DNA from: Pseudomonas fluorescens
GTDB taxonomy: Bacteria > Pseudomonadota > Gammaproteobacteria > Pseudomonadales > Pseudomonadaceae
DNA: 64,000 bases
NCBI RefSeq assembly: GCF_900215245.1
Contig: NZ_LT907842.1
Coordinates: 496,001 to 560,000, forward strand
Reading direction: 5' to 3'
Translations under genes and position numbers: made by a program
The notes under the pieces: generated by a model
What the model was told of the DNA's origin: nothing
Database searches by the model: none
What the model saw: the letters and a program-made list of their open reading frames with translations, nothing else
Shown: piece after piece, positions 3,763 to 28,300 of the stretch
Layout of the letters: the number at the start of each line of letters is the position of its first letter
Position numbering within the stretch: position 1 is the first letter of the stretch

Positions 3763-5432
3763 TGAGCCTGCAACTGAGCATCGCCCACGCCAGCGCCATC
3801 GGCCCTCGAACCGAGAACCAGGATGCCCTGCGCGTGGTCACGCCTGTGGCGGAACTGGCCGCAAGCAAGGGTTACCTGTGCGCCATGGCCGACGGCGTCA
3901 GCCAATGTGCCGACGGTGGCCTGGCCGCGCGCTCGACCTTACAGGCGCTGGCCCTGGACTATTACGCCACGCCGCAAACCTGGGGCGTGGCTCAGGCGCT
4001 CGAACGTTTGTTGCTGGCGCAGAATCGCTGGCTTCAGGCCAACGGTGGCGGTCAGCCGCTGCTGACCACCCTCAGCGCCCTGGTGTTTCGTGGCCAACGC
4101 TTCACGCTCGCGCATGTCGGCGATTGCCGGGTCTATCGCTGGCTGGACGGCGAGTTGCAGCGCATCAGCGAAGATCACGTGTGGGAGCAACCGGGCATGC
4201 ACCATGTGCTCAAGCGCGCCCTCGGCCTGGATCAACACCTGGTGCTGGATTTTCTCGACGGTGAATTGCGTGAGGGTGAATGTTTCCTGCTGCTCAGCGA
4301 TGGCGTGTGGGCCACCTTGGGCGATCACAGCATCCGGGCGATTCTGCGTGAGCAAACCGACCTGGATCTGGCGGTCAACACCCTGGTCAACGCTGCACAC
4401 CTGGCCGCCAGCCAGGACAATGCCAGCGCGCTGCTGGTGCGTATCGACAAACTGGGGGCCGCCACCCTTGGCGATGCGCTGGTGCAGTTGCAGCAATGGC
4501 CGCTGCCACCAGTCCTGAAAGCCGGGCAACACTTTGAGGGCTGGCAGGTTGAAAGCGTGTTGGCGCACAGCCGCCAATCCTTGCTGTACCGCGTACGCGA
4601 TGCGCAGCAGCAGCCTTGGTTGCTGAAAACCTTGCCGCTTAACCGTGAGGATGACAACGGTGCGGGTCAAGCGCTGCTCTCGGAAGAATGGTTTCTGCGC
4701 CGCGTTGCCGGGCGCGCGTTTCCTGAAGTGCATGCGGCCAGTGGGCGTCAGCATTTGTACTACGTAATGCGTGAATATCCGGGGCACACCCTGGCAGCAC
4801 TGTTCCAGCATCAGGGCCCACTGCCCCTGGCGCAGTGGCAGTCCATCGCCGAACGATTGTTGCGGGCGGTGGGCATGCTGCATCGACGGCAGATCCTGCA
4901 CCGGGACATCAAGCCGGAAAACCTGTTATTGGGTGACGACGGCGAACTGCGCGTCTTGGATTTCGGCCTGGCCTATTGCCCGGGGCTCTCTGAAGACCGC
5001 GCCCACGAACTGCCCGGCACGCCGAGTTTTATCGCCCCGGAGGCGTTCAGTGGCGAACATCCTACGGCGCAACAGGATTTATACAGCGTCGGCGTCACGC
5101 TCTATTACCTGCTGACCGGGCATTACCCCTACGGCGAAATCGAAGCCTTCCAGCGGCCCCGTTTTGCCCAGCCCGTCAGCGCCAGCCGCTATCGCCCCGA
5201 CCTGCCGGACTGGTTGCCCCTCAGCCTGGAACGAGCGGTGGCGCCTCACCCCGACCAACGTTATGAAACAGCCGAAGAATGGCTGCTTGTCCTGGAGCAG
5301 GCCGACCGCCGTGAGTTGAGCGTGCGCCCCAGACCGCTGCTGGAGCGCGAACCGCTCAAGGTCTGGCAAGCCGTGGCGCTGGCATCGTTGCTGGTCAATC
5401 TGGTGCTGGCGTACTGGCTGTTGCACCACTAG
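3762..5432 (+). CDS. Fused PP2C-type phosphatase and Ser/Thr protein kinase, membrane anchored
   Basis: 556 residues. Residues 1-235 are a PP2C phosphatase (RTENQD near 18, MADGVS, HVGDCRVYRW, LLLSDGVW, QDNASALLV). Residues about 260-525 are an STPK kinase domain with the catalytic loop HRDIKPENLLL and DFGLAYC. One hydrophobic helix (near 535-553) closes the protein, leaving both enzymes in the cytoplasm. The glycine-rich ATP loop is degenerate (LAHSRQSLLYRVRD has no GxGxxG), although a Lys in WLLKTL is kept at the VAIK position. The gene is coupled to nasA and precedes nirB, an arrangement conserved in other pseudomonads. A regulatory role in nitrate uptake or reduction is inferred from position; its targets are not visible. 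Confidence 0.88.
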   Translation: MSLQLSIAHASAIGPRTENQDALRVVTPVAELAASKGYLCAMADGVSQCADGGLAARSTLQALALDYYATPQTWGVAQALERLLLAQNRWLQANGGGQPLLTTLSALVFRGQRFTLAHVGDCRVYRWLDGELQRISEDHVWEQPGMHHVLKRALGLDQHLVLDFLDGELREGECFLLLSDGVWATLGDHSIRAILREQTDLDLAVNTLVNAAHLAASQDNASALLVRIDKLGAATLGDALVQLQQWPLPPVLKAGQHFEGWQVESVLAHSRQSLLYRVRDAQQQPWLLKTLPLNREDDNGAGQALLSEEWFLRRVAGRAFPEVHAASGRQHLYYVMREYPGHTLAALFQHQGPLPLAQWQSIAERLLRAVGMLHRRQILHRDIKPENLLLGDDGELRVLDFGLAYCPGLSEDRAHELPGTPSFIAPEAFSGEHPTAQQDLYSVGVTLYYLLTGHYPYGEIEAFQRPRFAQPVSASRYRPDLPDWLPLSLERAVAPHPDQRYETAEEWLLVLEQADRRELSVRPRPLLEREPLKVWQAVALASLLVNLVLAYWLLHH

Positions 5433-21229: not shown

Positions 21230-22657
21230 CTACAAATGAAACCTGTCCCCGCCCTGCCCCAACGCCGTCGCCAGCGCATCGAACCCCGCCCGCAACAACT
21301 GATCATCGCCCGACGTATTACAAATGCTCGCCCGAATGAACTGCGGCACTGCGGTTTGCCCCACTGCAAACGCCTCGGCGGTGGCGATCAGGTAATTATT
21401 CTGCTTTAGCTCGGCCTCGATTTCCGACGCTCGCCATGGCTCCGGCACTTCAATCCAGAAATGCGGACTGTTGAGGTGGGTGCGATATTCCAGGCCGGCC
21501 AGCAGGTCGCGCACCAGGGCTTTGCGTCGGGTGATCTCATTGATTTGTTGGCGTAACAAGTATTCAGCCGTGCCGTTTTCGATCCACTGGGTCGCCAGTT
21601 CCAGGGTCACCGGTGTGGCCATCCAGCAGGTCGAGCGTAACGCTGCCGAAATACGGCTGACCAATGCCGGTGGCGCATGCACATAGCCGACACGTAGCCC
21701 GGCAGACACCGCCTTGCTCAGGCTACTGATCAAAATCGTACGCTCAGGTGCGAAAAAGCTCAGCGGTGGTGGGCGATCCTCCACCAGGACGCCGTGGGCT
21801 TCGTCTTCAAGAATCAGCAGATTGTGCTCACGGCACACCTTAACCAGAGCCTCCCGGCGTGCGACAGACAGTACCGCCGTGGTCGGATTCTGGATGGTCG
21901 GCGTGCAGTACAGCGCCGAAACCCGATGATTACGGCAGACCTCATCCAGCGCAGCGGGCAGCACGCCTTCCTCATCCATTTCCAGACCGATCAGACGTAC
22001 GCCAAGCATCCGCGCAGCGGTGATCAGCCCTGGATAGGTCAGTTGTTCAGTGACCACCGTATCGCCCGCCCGCAGCAGCGCCATCATGGCGCAAAGCAAA
22101 CCATGCTGGCCGCCATTGACACAGATGACCTGCTCGGGGATCGGGTGAAACTCGCGCTGCACCAGCCATTGCGCACCGGCCTCACGGTAGCGCGGCAAAC
22201 CGGCGTCCGGTGTGTAGGCACTGATGTCCTGAAGGAACTTGGCGTTGGTCGACAGGGTTTGGAAGCTCTGCGCGAGAAACACCGTCTCCTGCCCAGGAAT
22301 GTGCATGTTACGGCTCATATCGAAATACTGACGCGGCTCCTCGCTGACGTTGCGAAAGCCTTCATCACGCTGGCGCTCCATCCCACGCTTGCGCACGAAC
22401 GTGCCGTCCCCCACCCGTGCGACGACTAACCCAAGGCGTTCCAGTTCGCCATAGGCGCGGCTGATGGTGCCGATGGTCACGCCCAGATTGTCGGAAAGAA
22501 CCCGATGGGGCGGCAGTTTTCGCCCCGGCTCAATCAAGCCTTCAAGGATGCCCCGTTCCATCACATCAGACAGGCGCTTGTACTTCACGCCCTGACCGCT
22601 GGACAACCCCTCACGCATAATTGACACCATGTCAATATTTGTTTTGACAGCCATCAT
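21230..22657 (-). CDS. MocR-type (GntR HTH / aminotransferase fold) transcriptional regulator
   Basis: 475 residues. Residues about 20-95 are a GntR winged helix (LPPHRVLSDNLGVTIGTISRAYGELERLGLV). Residues about 120-470 are an aminotransferase class I fold with the PLP lysine in SSLSKAVSAGLRVGYV near 290. MocR proteins bind PLP or PLP-amino acid adducts and usually control a divergent gene. Here that gene is the EamA transporter at 22758 that heads the sulfur-carrier operon, only 100 bases away. The N-terminus may begin at ATG 22657 or 22654. Effector identity is unknown; a PLP adduct with cysteine or an acetylserine-derived compound is an inference from context. Confidence 0.9.
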   Translation of the reverse strand: MMAVKTNIDMVSIMREGLSSGQGVKYKRLSDVMERGILEGLIEPGRKLPPHRVLSDNLGVTIGTISRAYGELERLGLVVARVGDGTFVRKRGMERQRDEGFRNVSEEPRQYFDMSRNMHIPGQETVFLAQSFQTLSTNAKFLQDISAYTPDAGLPRYREAGAQWLVQREFHPIPEQVICVNGGQHGLLCAMMALLRAGDTVVTEQLTYPGLITAARMLGVRLIGLEMDEEGVLPAALDEVCRNHRVSALYCTPTIQNPTTAVLSVARREALVKVCREHNLLILEDEAHGVLVEDRPPPLSFFAPERTILISSLSKAVSAGLRVGYVHAPPALVSRISAALRSTCWMATPVTLELATQWIENGTAEYLLRQQINEITRRKALVRDLLAGLEYRTHLNSPHFWIEVPEPWRASEIEAELKQNNYLIATAEAFAVGQTAVPQFIRASICNTSGDDQLLRAGFDALATALGQGGDRFHL

Positions 22658-22757: not shown

Positions 22758-23708
22758 ATGCCAATGTCCGCCGTTCTTGAAAACACTCCAAAAACAAAAA
22801 CTCAGAAACAGTGGTTGGCTGGCCTGGTCACCAGTGTGATGTTTCTTATCGTGTGCCTGAGTTGGGGCACCACTTGGCTGGGGATCAAGATTGCCGTCGA
22901 AAGCGTGCCACCGCTGACGTCCGCGGGCTTGCGCTTCCTGATCGCGTTTCCGTTGTTTCTGTGCTTTGCCCTGGTGCGCCGCGAACCCATCCTGTTCCCG
23001 CGAGAAAGCCGCTGGTTCTTCGTATTCGTGACCCTGTCCTATTTCAGCGTTCCCTATTACTTGCTCAACTATGGCGAGATGCACGTCTCGTCCGGTCTCA
23101 CCGCCCTGCTGTTCAGCTGCATGCCCGTCTTCATTCTGATTTTCTCCGCGCTGTTCCTGCGCGAGCGCATCTATTTTTCCCAAGTGGTCGGCATTGGCAT
23201 TGGTTTCGGCAGCCTCTACATGATCATCAAGAGCCAGGGCCTGCACCTGGACCACGCCGAGTTCTTCGGGGTACTGGCGATCCTGACCGCCGCGATCATG
23301 CATGCCTTGTGCTATGTCATTACCAAGCAAAAAGGCAGCGCCATCAGCGTAATTACCTACAACACCCTGCCCATCGGCATTGCCGGGCTGATGCTGTTCG
23401 TGGCCGGCCTGTGGTTTGAAACACCCACGTTCGAAAACATTACCCTGCGTTCCTGGAGCGCACTGTTCTACCTGGGACTGGTGGCGTCTGTGGGCGGTTT
23501 TATCGTGTACTTCATGCTGCTCAAACGCTTGAGCCCGATCATTTTGTCGTTCGTATTCATCATCTTCCCGGTATTCGCAGTGATCATCGGCGCCTGGTAC
23601 GAAGGCGTGGAGATTTCCCGCGACCTGATGCTGTACTCAGCGATCCTGCTGGCCGGCTTTGCGATTACCAAGTTGCCGGTTGAAAAACTGCTGGCCAAGA
23701 AAAATTGA
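22758..23708 (+). CDS. EamA/DMT-family transporter, probable amino-acid or metabolite exporter
   Basis: 316 residues with ten predicted membrane helices in two EamA halves (LSWGTTWLGIKIAVESVPP near residue 35; WSALFYLGLVASVGGFIVYFML near 235). The relatives include exporters of cysteine, threonine and other amino acids. It is the first gene of the operon with the JAMM-carrier-E1-rhodanese fusion 38 bases downstream and lies opposite a MocR regulator, so export of the pathway product is a reasonable inference. Substrate is not evident from sequence. Confidence 0.88.
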   Translation: MPMSAVLENTPKTKTQKQWLAGLVTSVMFLIVCLSWGTTWLGIKIAVESVPPLTSAGLRFLIAFPLFLCFALVRREPILFPRESRWFFVFVTLSYFSVPYYLLNYGEMHVSSGLTALLFSCMPVFILIFSALFLRERIYFSQVVGIGIGFGSLYMIIKSQGLHLDHAEFFGVLAILTAAIMHALCYVITKQKGSAISVITYNTLPIGIAGLMLFVAGLWFETPTFENITLRSWSALFYLGLVASVGGFIVYFMLLKRLSPIILSFVFIIFPVFAVIIGAWYEGVEISRDLMLYSAILLAGFAITKLPVEKLLAKKN

Positions 23709-23746: not shown

Positions 23747-25609
23747 ATGGATGTCCTCCGCCCGACCGCCCTGGAACAGATCTACGCCCACGCCAGCCGC
23801 AGCTACCCCGAAGAGTGCTGTGGTTTTGTCTTCGCCGACGGCAGTGTGTACCTGGGCAGCAATATCCAGAATGAGCTGCACCACAAGAACCCCGAGATGT
23901 ACCCGCGCAGCGCGGCCAATGGCTACACCTTTTCCGTGGCCGACACGCTGCTGCTGAACAAGGCGTTTCGCAGCGATAACCCGGTGGTGGTGATCTACCA
24001 CTCCCACCCGGACGTCGGTGCCTATTTCAGTGACGAAGACCAGGACAAGGCGCTGTTCCTGGGTGAGCCGATCTACCCCGTCAGCTACCTGGTGGTGGAC
24101 GTTTGCCAGGGCCAGGCCCTGGGCTCAAAGCTGTTTGCCTGGGATGGCAAGCATTTCGCACTTCAACCTTTCAACGACCTGCACACGGAGTTGTCCATGA
24201 ACGCTGTCTCTTTCCCCGATATTCTGGTTCGCGTGGCCAAGCTGCCGGAAGCGACCCTTGAGGGCACTGGATCGACATTGCGCGAAGTCATTGAAAACCT
24301 CTGCAGCAGCCACCCACAGCTGCGCCCGCACCTGTTTCATGAAAAAAACAACCAGCTCAAGGAACACTTTCTGTTCACCGCTGAAGAAGAACTGATCGGC
24401 GCAGACGACCCCTTGCCGGAAAAAGCCAGGATCGAAGTGCTGCTCGCGACCTCCGGCGGCATGGATGTCGACGCGCTGAGCAATGAAGAAGTGCAGCGTT
24501 ACGTGCGCCACATCACGCTGCCAGGCGTCGGTCGCGAAGGTCAGTTGAACCTCAAAAAAGCCAAGGTGTTGATCATCGGCACCGGTGGCCTGGGCTCACC
24601 CATCAGCCTTTACCTGGCGGCAGCCGGCATCGGCACACTGGGCCTGGTGGATTTCGATGTGGTGGAAAGCAGCAACCTGCAACGCCAGATCGTCCACGGC
24701 AACAGCACACTGGGTATGCCCAAGGTCGAGTCCGCCAAGCAACGCCTGCAGGACCTCAACCGGCATATTCAGATCAACGCCCACAACACGGCCCTGAATG
24801 CCGACAACGCGCTGGATCTGGTGGGCGCCTACGATCTGGTGATCGACGGCACCGACAATTTCGACACGCGCTACCTGGTCAACGACGCTTGCGTGCAGTT
24901 GGGCAAACCCTTGGTGTATGGCGCTATCTATCGTTTCGATGGGCAGATCAGCGTGCTCAACTACAAAGGCGGGCCGTGCTACCGCTGCCTGTTCCCCACA
25001 GCCCCGCCCGCAGAACTGGCCCCCAACTGCAGCGCCGGCGGCGTCATCGGTGTACTGCCGGGCGTGGTCGGGATAATTCAGGCCACCGAAGCCATCAAGT
25101 TGCTGATCGGCATCGGCGAACCGCTGTCCGGCCGCTTGATGCGCTTTGATGCACTGGCAATGAAATTCAGCGAAATCCGCTTCAAGCGTCGCGCCGATTG
25201 CCCATGCTGCTCGGAACTGCGTCACAGCGAAGCGGTGGCACCGGCGGTTTGCGCGGACGCCCTGCCCAGCCAACCGTCCCTGGCCGAAGAGCGCTACATC
25301 AAGCCGCGCGTACTCAAGCAACTGCTCGAACACCCGCGCAGCGCGGATGTGCTGCTGGATGTGCGCGACGCCAGCGAACTGGAAGTGTGCAAATTGCCGG
25401 GCGTTGTACACATCCCCCTCGCTGAACTGGATGGGCAACTCGACAGCCTCAGCCGGGACAACACCCATTACCTGATCTGCTACGCAGGGACCCGCGCCGA
25501 GCAAGCGGCCAGCACCTTGCTTGCGGCCGGTTTCGCCAATACCAAAGTCCTGCAGGGCGGCATGAAGCACTGGGTTCGCGACGTCGAACCCGATATGCCT
25601 TTGTACTGA
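23747..25609 (+). CDS. Four-domain sulfur-transfer protein: JAMM peptidase + MoaD/ThiS-like carrier + E1-like adenylyltransferase + rhodanese
   Basis: 620 residues. Residues 1-145: JAMM metallopeptidase with Glu22/23 and zinc ligands His85, His87 and Asp98 (YHSHP, then FSDED), like Mec+ and QbsD. Residues 151-238: a beta-grasp carrier of MoaD/ThiS/CysO type ending LLATSGG at 237-238. Residues 239-500: MoeB/ThiF-like E1 with GTGGLG at 278 and zinc-type pairs (CYRC, CPCC). Residues 535-620: rhodanese with loop CYAGTR. The Gly-Gly that must be free to be adenylylated is internal, so cleavage after residue 238, perhaps by its own JAMM domain, is required, or the Gly-Gly is used another way. Met151 and Met239 sit exactly at domain borders, as if separate genes had fused. 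ATG 23747 follows GAGAGAAAC. I know of related gene sets but cannot name this protein. Confidence 0.9.
   Translation: MDVLRPTALEQIYAHASRSYPEECCGFVFADGSVYLGSNIQNELHHKNPEMYPRSAANGYTFSVADTLLLNKAFRSDNPVVVIYHSHPDVGAYFSDEDQDKALFLGEPIYPVSYLVVDVCQGQALGSKLFAWDGKHFALQPFNDLHTELSMNAVSFPDILVRVAKLPEATLEGTGSTLREVIENLCSSHPQLRPHLFHEKNNQLKEHFLFTAEEELIGADDPLPEKARIEVLLATSGGMDVDALSNEEVQRYVRHITLPGVGREGQLNLKKAKVLIIGTGGLGSPISLYLAAAGIGTLGLVDFDVVESSNLQRQIVHGNSTLGMPKVESAKQRLQDLNRHIQINAHNTALNADNALDLVGAYDLVIDGTDNFDTRYLVNDACVQLGKPLVYGAIYRFDGQISVLNYKGGPCYRCLFPTAPPAELAPNCSAGGVIGVLPGVVGIIQATEAIKLLIGIGEPLSGRLMRFDALAMKFSEIRFKRRADCPCCSELRHSEAVAPAVCADALPSQPSLAEERYIKPRVLKQLLEHPRSADVLLDVRDASELEVCKLPGVVHIPLAELDGQLDSLSRDNTHYLICYAGTRAEQAASTLLAAGFANTKVLQGGMKHWVRDVEPDMPLY
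24187..24199 (+). promoter_or_regulatory. Internal ribosome-binding site and ATG at the JAMM/carrier border
   Basis: GGAG at 24187-24190 is six bases before an in-frame ATG at 24197 (Met151). Starting here would give a carrier-E1-rhodanese protein without the peptidase domain. The placement at an exact domain border makes a functional or ancestral start plausible. Confidence 0.55.
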
Positions 25610-25624
25610 TTCGGGGACAGCCTG

Positions 25625-26539
25625 ATGTTGCATAACTCAATACTCGACGTGATCGGCCAAACGCCCATCGTGCGCCTGGAGCAGTTTTCCGAGGACCTCG
25701 GCATCGAGGTCTACGCCAAGCTGGAATCACTCAACCCCGGCGGCAGTCACAAGGCGCGCATCGCCTTGGGCATGATCCTCGACGCCGAACGGCGCGGCGT
25801 GCTGATCCGCGATTCCGGGCAAACCATTATCGAACCCAGCGGCGGCAACACCGGCATCGGCCTGGTGATGGCAGGCAATGTACTGGGCTACAAAGTGGTA
25901 CTGGTGATCCCCGACAACTACAGCCCGGAAAAACAGAAACTGCTGCGTCTCTACGGCGCCAAGGTCGTGCTGTCGGACAGCCGTTTGGGCAATAACTCCC
26001 ATGGCGAAAAGTGCATGGAGCTGCAGCTGGAAAACCCCAGCTTCGTGATGCTCAACCAGCAACGCAACGGTGCCAACCCACAAACCCATCGGGATACCAC
26101 CGCGCCGGAAATCATCCGCGCCTTCGGTGAGCAGCGCGTTGACTATTTCGTCAGCGGTATCGGCACCGGTGGCCACATCACTGGCATCGGCGAAACCCTC
26201 AAAGCCGCATGGCCGGCGATCCGGGTGATGGGCGTTGAGCCGGAGGAATGCGACCTGCTGAAAAACCGGCACGCGCCACACCATATTCAGGGCCTGTCGA
26301 TTGGCCTGATCCCAAGCATCCTCAATGTCGAGGTGCTGGACGGCATGCTCAAGGTATCGCACCAGGCGTGCATCGACATGATGAAACGCATCATGCGCAC
26401 CGACGCCATCAGCCTTGGGTTGTCCTCAGCTGCCAACATGGTTGCCATCGCTCAGCTTGCCCCCGAACTTCCGCCCGAAACGGTTGTGTTGACCATGGTC
26501 TACGACAATGCTGACAGCTACCTGCCCAATTTCGAGTAA
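25625..26539 (+). CDS. Cysteine synthase (CysK/CysM)-family PLP enzyme with altered substrate loop
   Basis: 304 residues of fold-type II. PLP lysine is Lys43 in NPGGSHKARIA (usual form NPGGSxKDR). The substrate loop that is normally PTSGNTG reads PSGGNTG near residue 77, a notable change. The phosphate loop SGIGTGGHITGIG near 178 and the C-terminal GLSSAANM near 275 are kept. Cysteine synthases replace the acetyl or phosphate group of an activated serine by a sulfur nucleophile; CysM of Mycobacterium takes sulfur from the thiocarboxylate of CysO. Adjacent carrier, JAMM and acetyltransferase genes point to a carrier-dependent reaction here. The gene starts 15 bases after the fusion gene. Confidence 0.88.
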   Translation: MLHNSILDVIGQTPIVRLEQFSEDLGIEVYAKLESLNPGGSHKARIALGMILDAERRGVLIRDSGQTIIEPSGGNTGIGLVMAGNVLGYKVVLVIPDNYSPEKQKLLRLYGAKVVLSDSRLGNNSHGEKCMELQLENPSFVMLNQQRNGANPQTHRDTTAPEIIRAFGEQRVDYFVSGIGTGGHITGIGETLKAAWPAIRVMGVEPEECDLLKNRHAPHHIQGLSIGLIPSILNVEVLDGMLKVSHQACIDMMKRIMRTDAISLGLSSAANMVAIAQLAPELPPETVVLTMVYDNADSYLPNFE

Positions 26540-26576
26540 CCCGTTTGCCAACCATCCAGACTGTGGGGGTGCCTCC

Positions 26577-27569
26577 ATGGGGGGCTTTATCGACATGCAA
26601 CAGCTGCACGATGAGTTGCTTACCCACCTCATCAAGACCCTGACGCCTACGCAGATGAAGCAGTTGGAACCGCACCTGGCGCCGCTGATCCAGAACGCCG
26701 CGCAGGCCGTGGCCGAAGACTTGATCGCCTATGCCTATCGCGACCCGGCTTCCCGAGGGCGCGGCGAGTTGATCCTGGAGTCCTACGCCTCGTTCAAGGC
26801 CGTGCTGTTCTACCGGCTTGCGCACCTGGTGTGGAATTTTCCCGACCAGACTAACGGTCTGTTTTCGCGCATCGCCCTCAAGCTCAGCAACCAGGGCAAA
26901 GTGCTCTCCGGCGCCGAGATTCACCCCGCCGCACGCATCGGCCGGCGCTTCGTACTTGACCATGGCTACGGCACGGTGATCGGCGAAACCTGCGAGATCG
27001 GCAACGACTGCTACATCCTCTGCGGCGTGACATTGGGCGCACGGGGTATCGCCAATAACCCGGACGGCAAGCGTCACCCGCGCCTGGGCAACAATGTCGA
27101 GGTGGGCGCTGGCGCACGCGTGCTCGGCTATGTGCTGATCGGCGACAACGTGTTTATCAGCCCTTCATGCGTGATTACCCAGGATGTGCCGGCGGGCACC
27201 AAGGTCAAGGTGGTCAATCAGATTCAGCTGCAGAAAAACGCTGAATCGGACCACAGCAACTACCTCGGTGCGTTCGCCCTGGATGAGCGTTTACACGTGG
27301 TCGGTGAGGTCAGTGCCAGCCACAAGGTCACGGTACTGGATGCCGACTTTCACCCCCTTCAAGGGTTGATGCTGGAGGCCACGGTGAAAGAGCGTCATCA
27401 CCTGCAATTTCGCCTGCGTCGCCTCGATGTCGGCGACCACCTGCCGCGACTGCCACTGAACCTGAAAGTCTGCGGGCCCGAATTTGAAATCACCCTGCTC
27501 TCCCCTCCTGGCTTGAGCGCAATGGTGCGCCACCTGCTGCAAGCCAGCCCATTGATCGTCGGAGGTTGA
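26577..27569 (+). CDS. Serine O-acetyltransferase (CysE/EpsC-like) with C-terminal extension
   Basis: 330 residues from ATG 26577, with a G-run upstream; ATG 26595 is an alternative. Residues about 60-215 match SAT: ASFKAVLFYRLAHLVWNF, left-handed beta-helix repeats (IHPAARIGRRFVLDHGYGTVIGETCEIG), then VEVGAGARVLGYVLIGDN. It should make O-acetylserine for the preceding PLP enzyme. About 115 further residues (from QLQKNAESDHSNYL to the end) do not belong to ordinary SAT; they contain two similar beta-rich stretches and the protein ends in IVGG. The role of this extension is unknown. The downstream AlaX-like gene begins two bases after the stop. Confidence 0.85.
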   Translation: MGGFIDMQQLHDELLTHLIKTLTPTQMKQLEPHLAPLIQNAAQAVAEDLIAYAYRDPASRGRGELILESYASFKAVLFYRLAHLVWNFPDQTNGLFSRIALKLSNQGKVLSGAEIHPAARIGRRFVLDHGYGTVIGETCEIGNDCYILCGVTLGARGIANNPDGKRHPRLGNNVEVGAGARVLGYVLIGDNVFISPSCVITQDVPAGTKVKVVNQIQLQKNAESDHSNYLGAFALDERLHVVGEVSASHKVTVLDADFHPLQGLMLEATVKERHHLQFRLRRLDVGDHLPRLPLNLKVCGPEFEITLLSPPGLSAMVRHLLQASPLIVGG

Positions 27570-27571
27570 AC

Positions 27572-28300
27572 ATGTCCGTGCACACCATGGAAACCCTGGC
27601 GCTGTTTGACAGTGCCCCCTATCAGAACGCCTTCAGCGCGCGGGTAATTGCCGTCAGCGAACACGGTATCGCGCTGGAGCACACGCTGTTCTACCCCACC
27701 GGTGGCGGGCAACCGGGCGATACCGGGCACCTGACCCTGGCCGATGGCACGCGGGTCGAGGTGATCGGCACCGTGCGCGACCCGGTGCTGCGCTCGATCA
27801 TCTGGCACCAGGTCGAACACTGCCCCGAGCAATTGACAGCCGGGGTGCAAGTGGACGCAGGCCTGGACTGGCAGCGGCGTTACCAGCACATGAAAATGCA
27901 CACCTGCCTGCACTTGCTGTGCTCGATCATCGATGCACCGGTCACTGGTTGCAGCATCAGCGCAGACAAAGGTCGCCTGGATTTCGACCTGCCGGAAATG
28001 ACCCTCGACAAAGACAGCATCACCCGCGACCTCAATGCCTTGATCGAACAGGCCCATGAGGTGAAAACCCTGTCGATGCCCGCCTCCGAATATTCGACCC
28101 TGCTCCAAATCACCCGCACCCAGGCGGTGGCACCACCGGTCATCCAGGGTTCGGTCCGCGTGATCGAGATCGCCGGTATCGACATCCAGCCGTGCGGTGG
28201 CACGCACGTGATCAACACTGAAGAAATCGGCCGGGTGTTCTGCGAAAAAATCGAGAAAAAGAGCAAGCACAATCGCCGGGTGATCCTGCGCTTTGAGTGA
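27572..28300 (+). CDS. AlaX-type stand-alone tRNA-editing hydrolase
   Basis: 242 residues related to the editing domain of alanyl-tRNA synthetase. The two zinc-binding motifs are present: HTCLH near residue 110 (HxxxH) and CGGTH near 208 (CxxxH), and the N-terminal GGGQPGDTG loop is conserved. AlaX enzymes hydrolyse Ser or Gly wrongly attached to tRNA-Ala. ATG 27572 has GGAGG seven bases upstream; it is translationally close to the acetyltransferase gene. An editing enzyme as the last gene of an amino-acid synthesis and export operon suggests it may clear tRNA charged with the product; this is inference. Confidence 0.87.
   Translation: MSVHTMETLALFDSAPYQNAFSARVIAVSEHGIALEHTLFYPTGGGQPGDTGHLTLADGTRVEVIGTVRDPVLRSIIWHQVEHCPEQLTAGVQVDAGLDWQRRYQHMKMHTCLHLLCSIIDAPVTGCSISADKGRLDFDLPEMTLDKDSITRDLNALIEQAHEVKTLSMPASEYSTLLQITRTQAVAPPVIQGSVRVIEIAGIDIQPCGGTHVINTEEIGRVFCEKIEKKSKHNRRVILRFE

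What the first reader, a model, noticed from the sequence alone, without database searches (positions are those of the whole stretch)
23747..25609. Single polypeptide fusing JAMM peptidase, MoaD-like sulfur carrier, E1 adenylyltransferase and rhodanese, with the carrier's Gly-Gly buried in the chain
Seen: JAMM ligands (His85, His87, Asp98), a beta-grasp carrier ending in SGG at 237-238, an E1 GTGGLG loop at 278, and a rhodanese CYAGTR loop. Known: in CysO/Mec+ and QbsE/QbsD systems these are separate proteins, and the carrier needs a free C-terminal Gly-Gly to become a thiocarboxylate. Inference: the protein must be cleaved after Gly238, possibly by its own JAMM domain, making it a self-processing polyprotein; or a fused carrier works in an untested way. 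Comparative surveys have noted fusions of these domains, but I know of no experimental study.
Basis: partly seen in the sequence, partly recalled or inferred. Interest (0 to 1): 0.88.

Follow-up and report, generated by a model that had tools for sequence, protein, structure and literature searches.

The report
Sulfur-carrier polyprotein with buried cleavage site
In one group of Pseudomonas, four enzyme parts of a rare cysteine-making route are welded into one protein whose sulfur-carrying part ends mid-chain, so it probably has to be cut free, and a signal hidden inside the gene probably lets the cell also make a shorter version.

Summary
Window 23747-25609 (+) is one intact 620-aa frame: JAMM peptidase, ThiS/MoaD-type carrier ending ATSGG-238, MoeB/MoeZ-type E1, rhodanese. 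It is no artefact: 64 of 79 related loci have all four domains in frame, and the fused proteins form one clade. Two fusions differ in age. Carrier-GG-E1 is old (in frame in 78 of 79 loci); JAMM is a separate gene outside the P. fluorescens group and was joined once. Gly237-Gly238 never vary while several following residues do, and JAMM lies beside the carrier in 48 of 48 loci found by carrier alone. Cleavage after Gly238 is the best reading; JAMM cleavage of buried Gly-Gly is proven for MoaD-MoaE-type fusions and was proposed for fused carriers in 2006. New here: the carrier's former ribosome-binding site and start codon (ATG 24197, Met151) survive inside the fused gene in 66 of 66 loci, in its lowest synonymous-diversity window, so a 470-aa product is likely too. 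The operon (EamA, cysteine-synthase-like, SAT-like, AlaX, MocR) suggests CysO-like cysteine synthesis.

The parts
23747..24196 (+). JAMM/Prok-JAB peptidase domain, residues 1-150; metal ligands His85 (23999-24001), His87 (24005-24007), Asp98 (24038-24040)
   Evidence: Pfam PF14464 57.5 bits; ligand residues the same in 65 of 65 fused proteins; phmmer to PDB 2kcq E 5.6e-8
24197..24460 (+). ThiS/MoaD-like beta-grasp sulfur carrier, residues 151-238
   Evidence: PF02597 23.2 bits when cut out, cut-off 22.5; weak PDB profile matches to MoaD and SAMP1
24455..24460 (+). Gly237-Gly238, predicted cleavage after Gly238
   Evidence: the same in 65 of 65 fused proteins while 239, 241-243 vary; 123 of 123 carrier proteins
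24461..25216 (+). short linker plus MoeB/MoeZ-type E1 adenylyltransferase, residues 239-490
   Evidence: ThiF 277.5 bits; PDB 1jw9 MoeB E 1.2e-61, Uba4 6yub E 1.4e-59
25310..25579 (+). rhodanese domain, residues 522-611, loop CYAGTR with Cys578
   Evidence: PF00581 53.6 bits; Cys578 in 65 of 65
24187..24190 (+). GGAG Shine-Dalgarno-like site kept inside the coding frame, before the internal start
   Evidence: in 66 of 66 fused genome-contig loci and 46 of 46 fused genus-sample loci; -6.1 kcal/mol with anti-SD, best of 9 in-frame Met codons
24197..24199 (+). internal ATG (Met151), aligned with the start codon of the separate carrier-E1-rhodanese gene in sister lineages
   Evidence: 66 of 66 and 46 of 46 fused loci; alignment with loci that have a separate JAMM
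24170..24214 (+). synonymous-diversity trough, codons 142-156
   Evidence: obs/exp 0.048 against 0.59 for the gene; lowest of 606 windows, 0 of 2000 permutations
22758..23708 (+). EamA/DMT-family transporter of the same gene cluster
   Evidence: PF00892 151.5 bits; order conserved in 78 of 79 loci
25625..26539 (+). cysteine-synthase-like PLP enzyme with loop EPSGGNTG
   Evidence: PF00291 246.7 bits; TIGR01136 299.4 bits, below its cut-off of 344.15; loop in 79 of 79 loci
26508..27569 (+). serine O-acetyltransferase-like (CysE/EpsC) protein
   Evidence: TIGR01172 149.8 bits, below its cut-off of 210.65
27566..28300 (+). AlaX-like alanyl-tRNA editing protein
   Evidence: NF040865 203.3 bits, below its cut-off of 300; PF07973 43.3 bits, over its cut-off
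21230..22657 (-). divergent MocR-type (GntR + aminotransferase) regulator
   Evidence: PF00392 and PF00155; NF052286 EhuR-like 451.2 bits, below its cut-off of 480

Best explanation
This is a fused form of a CysO/Mec+/MoeZ-type protein-thiocarboxylate cysteine pathway. Steps: (1) the gene is translated from ATG 23747 into the 620-aa four-domain protein and, from the kept internal site at ATG 24197, probably also into the 470-aa carrier-E1-rhodanese protein. (2) A JAMM domain, in cis or in trans, cuts after Gly238, freeing the carrier C-terminus from the E1. (3) E1 adenylates Gly238 and the rhodanese supplies persulfide sulfur, giving carrier-COSH. (4) The operon's acetyltransferase makes O-acetylserine and its cysteine-synthase-like enzyme adds the carrier thiocarboxylate to it. 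(5) JAMM releases cysteine (or a close relative) from the carrier, and the EamA protein may export it. Shown by sequence: domains, invariant residues, linkage, single origin of the JAMM fusion, kept internal start signals. Inferred: cleavage, double translation, chemistry and product.
For: Domains and active residues intact. Gly-Gly constant while its codons and residues 239, 241-243 drift, so the constraint is on the protein. Carrier-E1 in one frame in 78 of 79 loci; JAMM present beside the carrier in 79 of 79, and in 48 of 48 plus 11 of 11 loci found by carrier alone. Fused JAMM-carrier rows form one clade, 98/94 support; the linker DNA resembles the intergenic leader of separate-gene species. 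Internal ATG plus GGAG in all 66 and 46 fused loci, the lowest synonymous window of the gene, strongest SD of 9 in-frame Met codons, RNA less folded than shuffles (z +2.19). Complete operon order in 78 of 79 loci. Precedents for JAMM cutting after buried Gly-Gly: PMC4443979, PMC8832034, PMC6043591 (passages); CysO chemistry in PMC3227635 (passages).
Against: No cleavage, thiocarboxylate or second start has been measured. No structure could be predicted. The carrier match is weak (Pfam E 1e-4, PDB profile E 0.011 at best). The cysteine-synthase-like, acetyltransferase-like and AlaX-like proteins score below the NCBIfam cut-offs, and the synthase carries EPSGGNTG and GSHKAR where its nearest solved relative has ECTSGNVG and GSVKDR, so the product may not be cysteine. 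Gene starts do not always show a synonymous trough (CysKM codons 1-15 ratio 0.722, EamA 0.536, the fused gene's own start 0.35), and a second trough at codons 175-183 is unexplained, so the trough alone does not prove a start. Asp240 is also the same in 65 of 65, so not every residue behind Gly-Gly drifts. AlaX has no role in the plain cysteine scheme.
Confidence: 0.62

Rival explanations
1. The fused carrier is never cleaved. It serves as a docking or regulatory ubiquitin-like domain, and the E1-rhodanese part works on free carriers such as the genome's MoaD-like or ThiS-like proteins.
For: The genome has two other PF02597 carriers, and both end in a free Gly-Gly (L088; L089). Iyer et al. 2006 describe ThiF proteins with an N-terminal Ub-like domain distinct from ThiS (PMC1779556 passage).
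Against: Constant Gly-Gly with variable flanks and constant JAMM partnership have no reason under this reading. SAMP1-MoaE and MoaX fusions needed cleavage for function (PMC4443979 passages, PMC4326299 abstract).
Confidence: 0.12
2. Only the 620-aa protein is made. The GGAG-ATG inside is a fossil of the former gene boundary or is kept for another reason (codon usage, mRNA structure, regulator binding).
For: A second, unexplained synonymous trough lies at codons 175-183; the fusion is confined to one clade; real starts nearby need not show a trough.
Against: A fossil should drift: synonymous diversity in the whole gene is 0.59 of expectation but 0.048 here. GGAG survives even where residue 147 changed (Thr, Ala or Met).
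Confidence: 0.25
3. The operon does not make ordinary cysteine but a cysteine-like non-protein amino acid or thiol that is exported by EamA and kept off tRNA by AlaX.
For: AlaX and EamA are in the conserved order of 78 of 79 loci. Synthase loops differ from its nearest solved relatives; best PDB match is O-ureido-L-serine synthase. A relative locus (L109) continues into an NRPS-like 982-aa frame after AlaX.
Against: The six best PDB matches are nearly equal (E 1.5e-66 to 1e-65; four are cysteine synthases). The NRPS neighbour is one locus in a draft with frame breaks, and its identity was read by eye from the translation, not scanned. No NRPS-like frame is among the ORFs listed after AlaX in the window up to 32000.
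Confidence: 0.28

Closest known systems
CysO / Mec+ / CysM / MoeZ cysteine pathway of Mycobacterium (PMC3227635 passages)
   Same: ThiS-like carrier, JAMM-type protease (Mec+; its class is recalled), E1-rhodanese and a cysteine-synthase-family enzyme
   Different: separate proteins there; carrier thiocarboxylated at the last Gly of its GG; O-phosphoserine substrate; here an acetyltransferase-like gene, AlaX, EamA and MocR are in the cluster
Iyer et al. 2006 gene neighbourhood 4c: ThiS/MoaD, E1-rhodanese, JAB, cysteine synthase (PMC1779556 passages and section 12)
   Same: same four components; P. aeruginosa is listed, whose PA2100-PA2106 show this gene order in other papers
   Different: the parts I read give E1 fused to rhodanese and a non-ThiS Ub-like domain fused to some ThiF, but not the carrier-E1 or JAMM-carrier-E1-rhodanese fusion; its figures were not available to me
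MoaD-MoaE fusions cut after Gly: M. tuberculosis MoaX, H. volcanii SAMP1-MoaE (artificial), D. radiodurans DRMoaD-MoaE (PMC4326299 abstract, PMC4443979 and PMC8832034 passages)
   Same: carrier Gly-Gly buried by fusion to a partner enzyme, cleavage needed for function
   Different: partner is MoaE, not the activating E1; protease is a separate protein (unidentified for MoaX in the abstract)
Capped carriers QbsE/QbsD and PtmS2/PtmS1 (PMC6006322 passages)
   Same: a protease (JAMM family for PtmS1) exposes Gly-Gly by removing residues behind it
   Different: the cap is 1-2 residues in the Ptm carriers, here the whole 382-aa E1-rhodanese

Membership tests
CysO/Mec+/MoeZ/CysM thiocarboxylate cysteine pathway | ThiS/MoaD-fold carrier with Gly-Gly | tested here: met
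   PF02597 23.2 bits over cut-off 22.5 when cut out; GG at 237-238. Fold not modelled
CysO/Mec+/MoeZ/CysM thiocarboxylate cysteine pathway | JAMM peptidase with complete metal site | tested here: met
   PF14464 57.5 bits; His85, His87, Ser95, Asp98 in 65 of 65
CysO/Mec+/MoeZ/CysM thiocarboxylate cysteine pathway | E1-rhodanese of MoeZ type | tested here: inconclusive
   MoeZ model NF005902 411.7 bits, below its cut-off of 647; MoeB subfamily model NF004281 319.4 over 266
CysO/Mec+/MoeZ/CysM thiocarboxylate cysteine pathway | CysM-type synthase | tested here: not met
   CysM model TIGR01138 222.9 bits, below its cut-off of 394.2; CysK TIGR01139 292.7, below 350.95. A related but divergent synthase
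CysO/Mec+/MoeZ/CysM thiocarboxylate cysteine pathway | carrier thiocarboxylate and carrier-cysteine adduct formed | not testable with these tools
   needs mass spectrometry
Fused carriers matured by JAMM (MoaX-like principle) | Gly-Gly buried by a C-terminal fusion partner | tested here: met
   carrier-E1 in frame in 78 of 79 loci
Fused carriers matured by JAMM (MoaX-like principle) | cleavage after Gly-Gly by a JAMM | not testable with these tools
   inferred from conservation and linkage only
Bacterial ubiquitin-like conjugation or defence systems (6A-MBL cap2_3) | E1 of the 6A-MBL cap2_3 model | tested here: not met
   NF058523 49.2 bits against a cut-off of 320
Bacterial ubiquitin-like conjugation or defence systems (6A-MBL cap2_3) | an E2-like domain or gene beside the E1 | tested here: not met
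   no such match among the seven proteins of the neighbourhood scanned with Pfam or, in the families shown, the six scanned with NCBIfam; PADLOC not run

The most novel reading that the evidence does not exclude
A single bacterial gene encodes a self-assembling thiocarboxylate factory. One frame gives a 620-aa polyprotein and, from a kept internal start under strong synonymous constraint, a 470-aa version, so the ratio of peptidase to carrier-E1 is set by translation. The polyprotein cuts its own carrier free of the enzyme that will charge it. The pathway makes a cysteine-like non-protein amino acid, exported by EamA and kept off tRNA by the co-encoded AlaX.
Probability: 0.17. Interest if true: 0.8.

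Novelty: new variant of a known kind. Interest (0 to 1): 0.6.

Why it matters
It would give a one-gene model for how a ubiquitin-like carrier is matured, charged and recycled, with protease, carrier, activating enzyme and sulfurtransferase in fixed order. It also catches a gene fusion that kept the downstream gene's ribosome-binding site and start, a testable case of one gene making two nested products. The locus has a P. aeruginosa counterpart by gene order (PA2100-PA2106) whose cysteine-synthase-like and acetyltransferase genes recent papers list without, in the passages I saw, having tested them, so the question 'what does this operon make?' is open and addressable in laboratory pseudomonads.

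Tried and rejected
Rejected: a sequencing or frameshift artefact (all four domains in one frame in 64 of 79 genome-contig loci and 44 of 48 genus-sample loci). Rejected: an internal start at Met239 right after Gly-Gly (ATG in the window, but residue 239 is Ile in 16 of 65, SD only -1.7 kcal/mol, synonymous ratio about 0.8). Not found: a functional split at Gly238. Six short hits to the carrier profile (one is the window's own fragment) all carry residues after GG. The one genome with a break there (L099) reads SGERA-stop, having lost Gly238, and looks decayed. Weak, distant hits do include small carriers ending in free Gly-Gly: of nine weak genus hits four were read and all four end GG-stop (L102-L105); of three weak phylum hits two were read, ending GG-stop (L106) and GGS-stop (L107). 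None of L102-L106 matched the neighbouring genes; L107 has a cysteine-synthase-like gene and a separate E1 nearby, the ordinary unfused arrangement.

ORF length alone cannot tell fused from separate (L101 and L084 have long open frames but a separate JAMM), so classifications use frame and stop checks. Rows dropped: from the synonymous analysis 15 of 79 loci (12 with separate JAMM; L033, L053, L068 with frame breaks), leaving 64 plus the window, then 44 representatives; from the tree L033, L053, L068, L110 (85 of 89 rows kept, 81 distinct). The genome-contig scan kept the best 80 of 157 matches, so the rest were not seen.
Full report
What is there. The frame 23747-25609 (+) encodes 620 aa with four domains: Prok-JAB (residues 8-117, 57.5 bits), ThiF/E1 (252-487, 277.5 bits) and rhodanese (522-611, 53.6 bits) by Pfam, and between JAMM and E1 a carrier that Pfam does not report in the full-length protein but which, cut out, just passes the ThiS gathering score (23.2 vs 22.5 bits; 7 of 8 family members match at E 1 or better). 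A profile of eight carriers matches five ThiS/MoaD or SAMP1 chains only weakly (E 0.011-0.089; the other two of seven hits are a SNAPIN homologue, E 0.15, and Urm1, E 1.7); the three alignments printed run through to the C-terminal Gly-Gly. The E1 is closest to MoeB and Uba4 among solved structures; the JAMM is closest to 2kcq. His85, His87, Ser95, Asp98, Gly237, Gly238, Cys428 and Cys578 are the same in 65 of 65 fused proteins (window plus 64 loci).

How widespread. One scan of genome contigs with the JAMM-carrier part returned 79 loci (best 80 of 157 kept). All four domains are in one frame in 64 of 79. JAMM-carrier-E1 are in one frame in 65 (L033 breaks before the rhodanese), L053 has JAMM-carrier in frame with a break inside the E1 region, and 13 have JAMM out of frame with the carrier: L068, a frame break in a gene otherwise like the fused ones, and 12 separate JAMM genes. 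Carrier and E1 are in one frame in 78 of 79. As that scan used JAMM as well as carrier peptides, I repeated the search with the carrier profile alone: 58 of 298 genus genomes matched at E 0.001; 49 of them (own genome included) at E 1.3e-35 or better, the other nine only weakly (E 1e-5 to 9e-4). I fetched the 48 other strong loci: JAMM lies beside the carrier in 48 of 48; in 45 JAMM-carrier-E1 are in frame (44 through the rhodanese), two have a separate JAMM, one (L099) is broken exactly at the Gly-Gly and reads SGERA-stop. These species overlap with the first set. In a family sample 48 of 398 genomes matched at E 1e-10; the 11 of its loci that I fetched in addition all have a separate JAMM beside an in-frame carrier-E1. 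In a phylum sample 9 of 398 matched at E 0.001 (6 strong, all same genus, own included), in a class sample 2 of 369 at E 1e-8 (own included).

Two fusions of different age. In P. alcaligenes, P. indica, P. otitidis, Vreelandella, Paraburkholderia and others JAMM is its own gene, followed by a Shine-Dalgarno-like site and the ATG of a carrier-E1-rhodanese gene. On an E1-based tree of 81 proteins the 65 fused rows are one side of one branch (support 98/94; bootstrap not fully settled, root at the midpoint). The linker DNA of the fused genes resembles the intergenic leader of the separate-gene species: P. indica (L073) tgatcaacgaccctgcaaaaggagttgtacATG against P. proteolytica (L055) ccttcaacgacctgcaaacggagttgtacATG. 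I infer that JAMM was joined by loss of its stop, and that carrier-E1 is the older fusion.

A start site inside the gene. In the loci with JAMM and carrier in frame the former start ATG (Met151, window 24197) and its GGAG (24187-24190) survive: 66 of 66 genome-contig loci and 46 of 46 genus-sample loci. In 44 representatives, synonymous diversity over codons 142-156 is 0.048 of expectation against 0.59 for the gene, the lowest of 606 windows; 0 of 2000 site permutations gave a window as low. No 15-codon window in the four neighbouring genes tested is as low (minima 0.117-0.295). The site has the strongest anti-SD pairing of the nine in-frame Met codons (-6.1 kcal/mol; annotated start -3.0), and the RNA around it is less folded than shuffles (198 of 200 shuffles fold at least as well). 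Against: real starts need not show a trough (codons 1-15: CysKM 0.722, EamA 0.536, the fused gene 0.35), the low EpsC value (0.117) lies where its listed frame overlaps CysKM, and a second trough at codons 175-183 (0.029 in the 9-codon scan) is unexplained. I rate a second product from Met151 at about 0.7.

The buried Gly-Gly. In 65 fused proteins positions 234-238 (ATSGG) never vary; 239 is Met or Ile, 240 always Asp, 241-243 vary. Synonymous diversity at the junction is ordinary (0.72-0.80), so selection there acts on the protein. Among 139 proteins fetched by two searches, 123 hold this carrier end and all 123 have Gly-Gly before the E1; the other 16 are JAMM fusions of other kinds without it. 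Many of the 123 are near-identical. The residue after GG is Met, Leu, Ser, Ile, Thr, Val or Ala, and the stretch to the E1 start is mostly one length but varies in a few. A peptide-bonded Gly cannot be adenylated at its carboxylate (established MoaD/ThiS/CysO chemistry). The simplest reading is cleavage after Gly238 by a JAMM, in cis or trans.

Neighbourhood and function. The order MocR(-), EamA, JAMM, carrier-E1-rhodanese, cysteine-synthase-like, serine-acetyltransferase-like, AlaX is complete in 78 of 79 loci (not L076) and 11 of 13 further loci (not L110, which has lost the middle, nor L111, without AlaX in the stretch). The synthase-like enzyme has NPGGSHK[A/V/T]RIAL and [I/L]EPSGGNTG in 79 of 79 loci, unlike the solved relative aligned, and scores below the CysK and CysM cut-offs. 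JAMM is fused to EamA in P0066, P0071, P0072, P0074 and P0075, and ThiS-JAMM to an aminomutase-type enzyme in P0076 and P0078. In L109 the cluster runs on into a 982-aa frame that I read by eye as NRPS-like. In P. aeruginosa papers, PA2100-PA2103 are among the genes up on N-acetylcysteine (PMC9431628, passages), PA2101-PA2104 and PA2106 are listed with values of 2.2-4.3 in a table of an RpoH study (PMC9866376, one table passage), and PA2104 and PA2105 are named (PMC12800425, PMC13256707, passages). The orthology is by gene order and description; I did not align the PAO1 proteins.

What is known. CysO is thiocarboxylated by MoeZ, loaded with cysteine by CysM and freed by Mec+ (PMC3227635, passages). 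Iyer et al. 2006 list a neighbourhood of ThiS/MoaD, E1-rhodanese, JAB and cysteine synthase including P. aeruginosa, and suggest that JAB might cut fused ThiS/MoaD free (PMC1779556, passages and section 12). Cleavage of buried Gly-Gly is shown elsewhere: MoaX (PMC4326299, abstract), SAMP1-MoaE (PMC4443979, passages), DRMoaD-MoaE (PMC8832034, passages), archaeal ubiquitin and SAMP precursors (PMC6043591, passages); capped carriers PtmS2 and the QbsD precedent (PMC6006322, passages). One passage points the other way on detail: it reports that for HvJAMM1 the diglycine is not required for cleavage of linear fusions (PMC8832034 citing earlier work), whereas PMC4443979 saw no cleavage in vivo without it. 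Ten searches of the open PMC library listed no experimental study of this four-domain protein or of an internal start in it; the library lacks most subscription journals.

Verdict. Observation confirmed; interpretation partly supported; new variant of a known kind. The single JAMM fusion, the constrained internal start and the older carrier-E1 fusion are the additions of this work. Cleavage, second product and chemistry remain to be shown.

Noticed in passing
24269-24295 (codons 175-183): A second stretch with almost no synonymous change (ratio 0.029 in the 9-codon scan) with several uncommon codons; no RNA structure found that explains it.
   Followed up: partly
L109 13427-16375: In a relative from another family of the class, the same JAMM-carrier-E1-synthase-SAT-AlaX order runs into an NRPS-like frame (read by eye), hinting that the operon may feed a natural product.
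   Followed up: partly
proteins P0066, P0071, P0072, P0074, P0075: JAMM fused to the C-terminus of the EamA transporter instead of to the carrier; P0066 and the carrier-E1 protein P0114 both list a longest contig of 6755 bases, so may be neighbours.
   Followed up: no
proteins P0076 and P0078: ThiS-JAMM fused to a glutamate-1-semialdehyde-aminomutase-type enzyme.
   Followed up: no
L099 (G567) about 5190-5210: A genome in one contig with the fused gene broken exactly at the Gly-Gly (SGERA-stop); the neighbouring genes are all still matched.
   Followed up: partly
own genome C1:93632-94746 (L087, L005), outside the window: Another Prok-JAB gene next to a distant E1-like match, possibly a ubiquitin-like system.
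   Followed up: no
25625-26539: The cysteine-synthase-like enzyme has EPSGGNTG and NPGGSHKARIAL-type loops in 79 of 79 loci, unlike the nearest solved relative aligned.
   Followed up: partly
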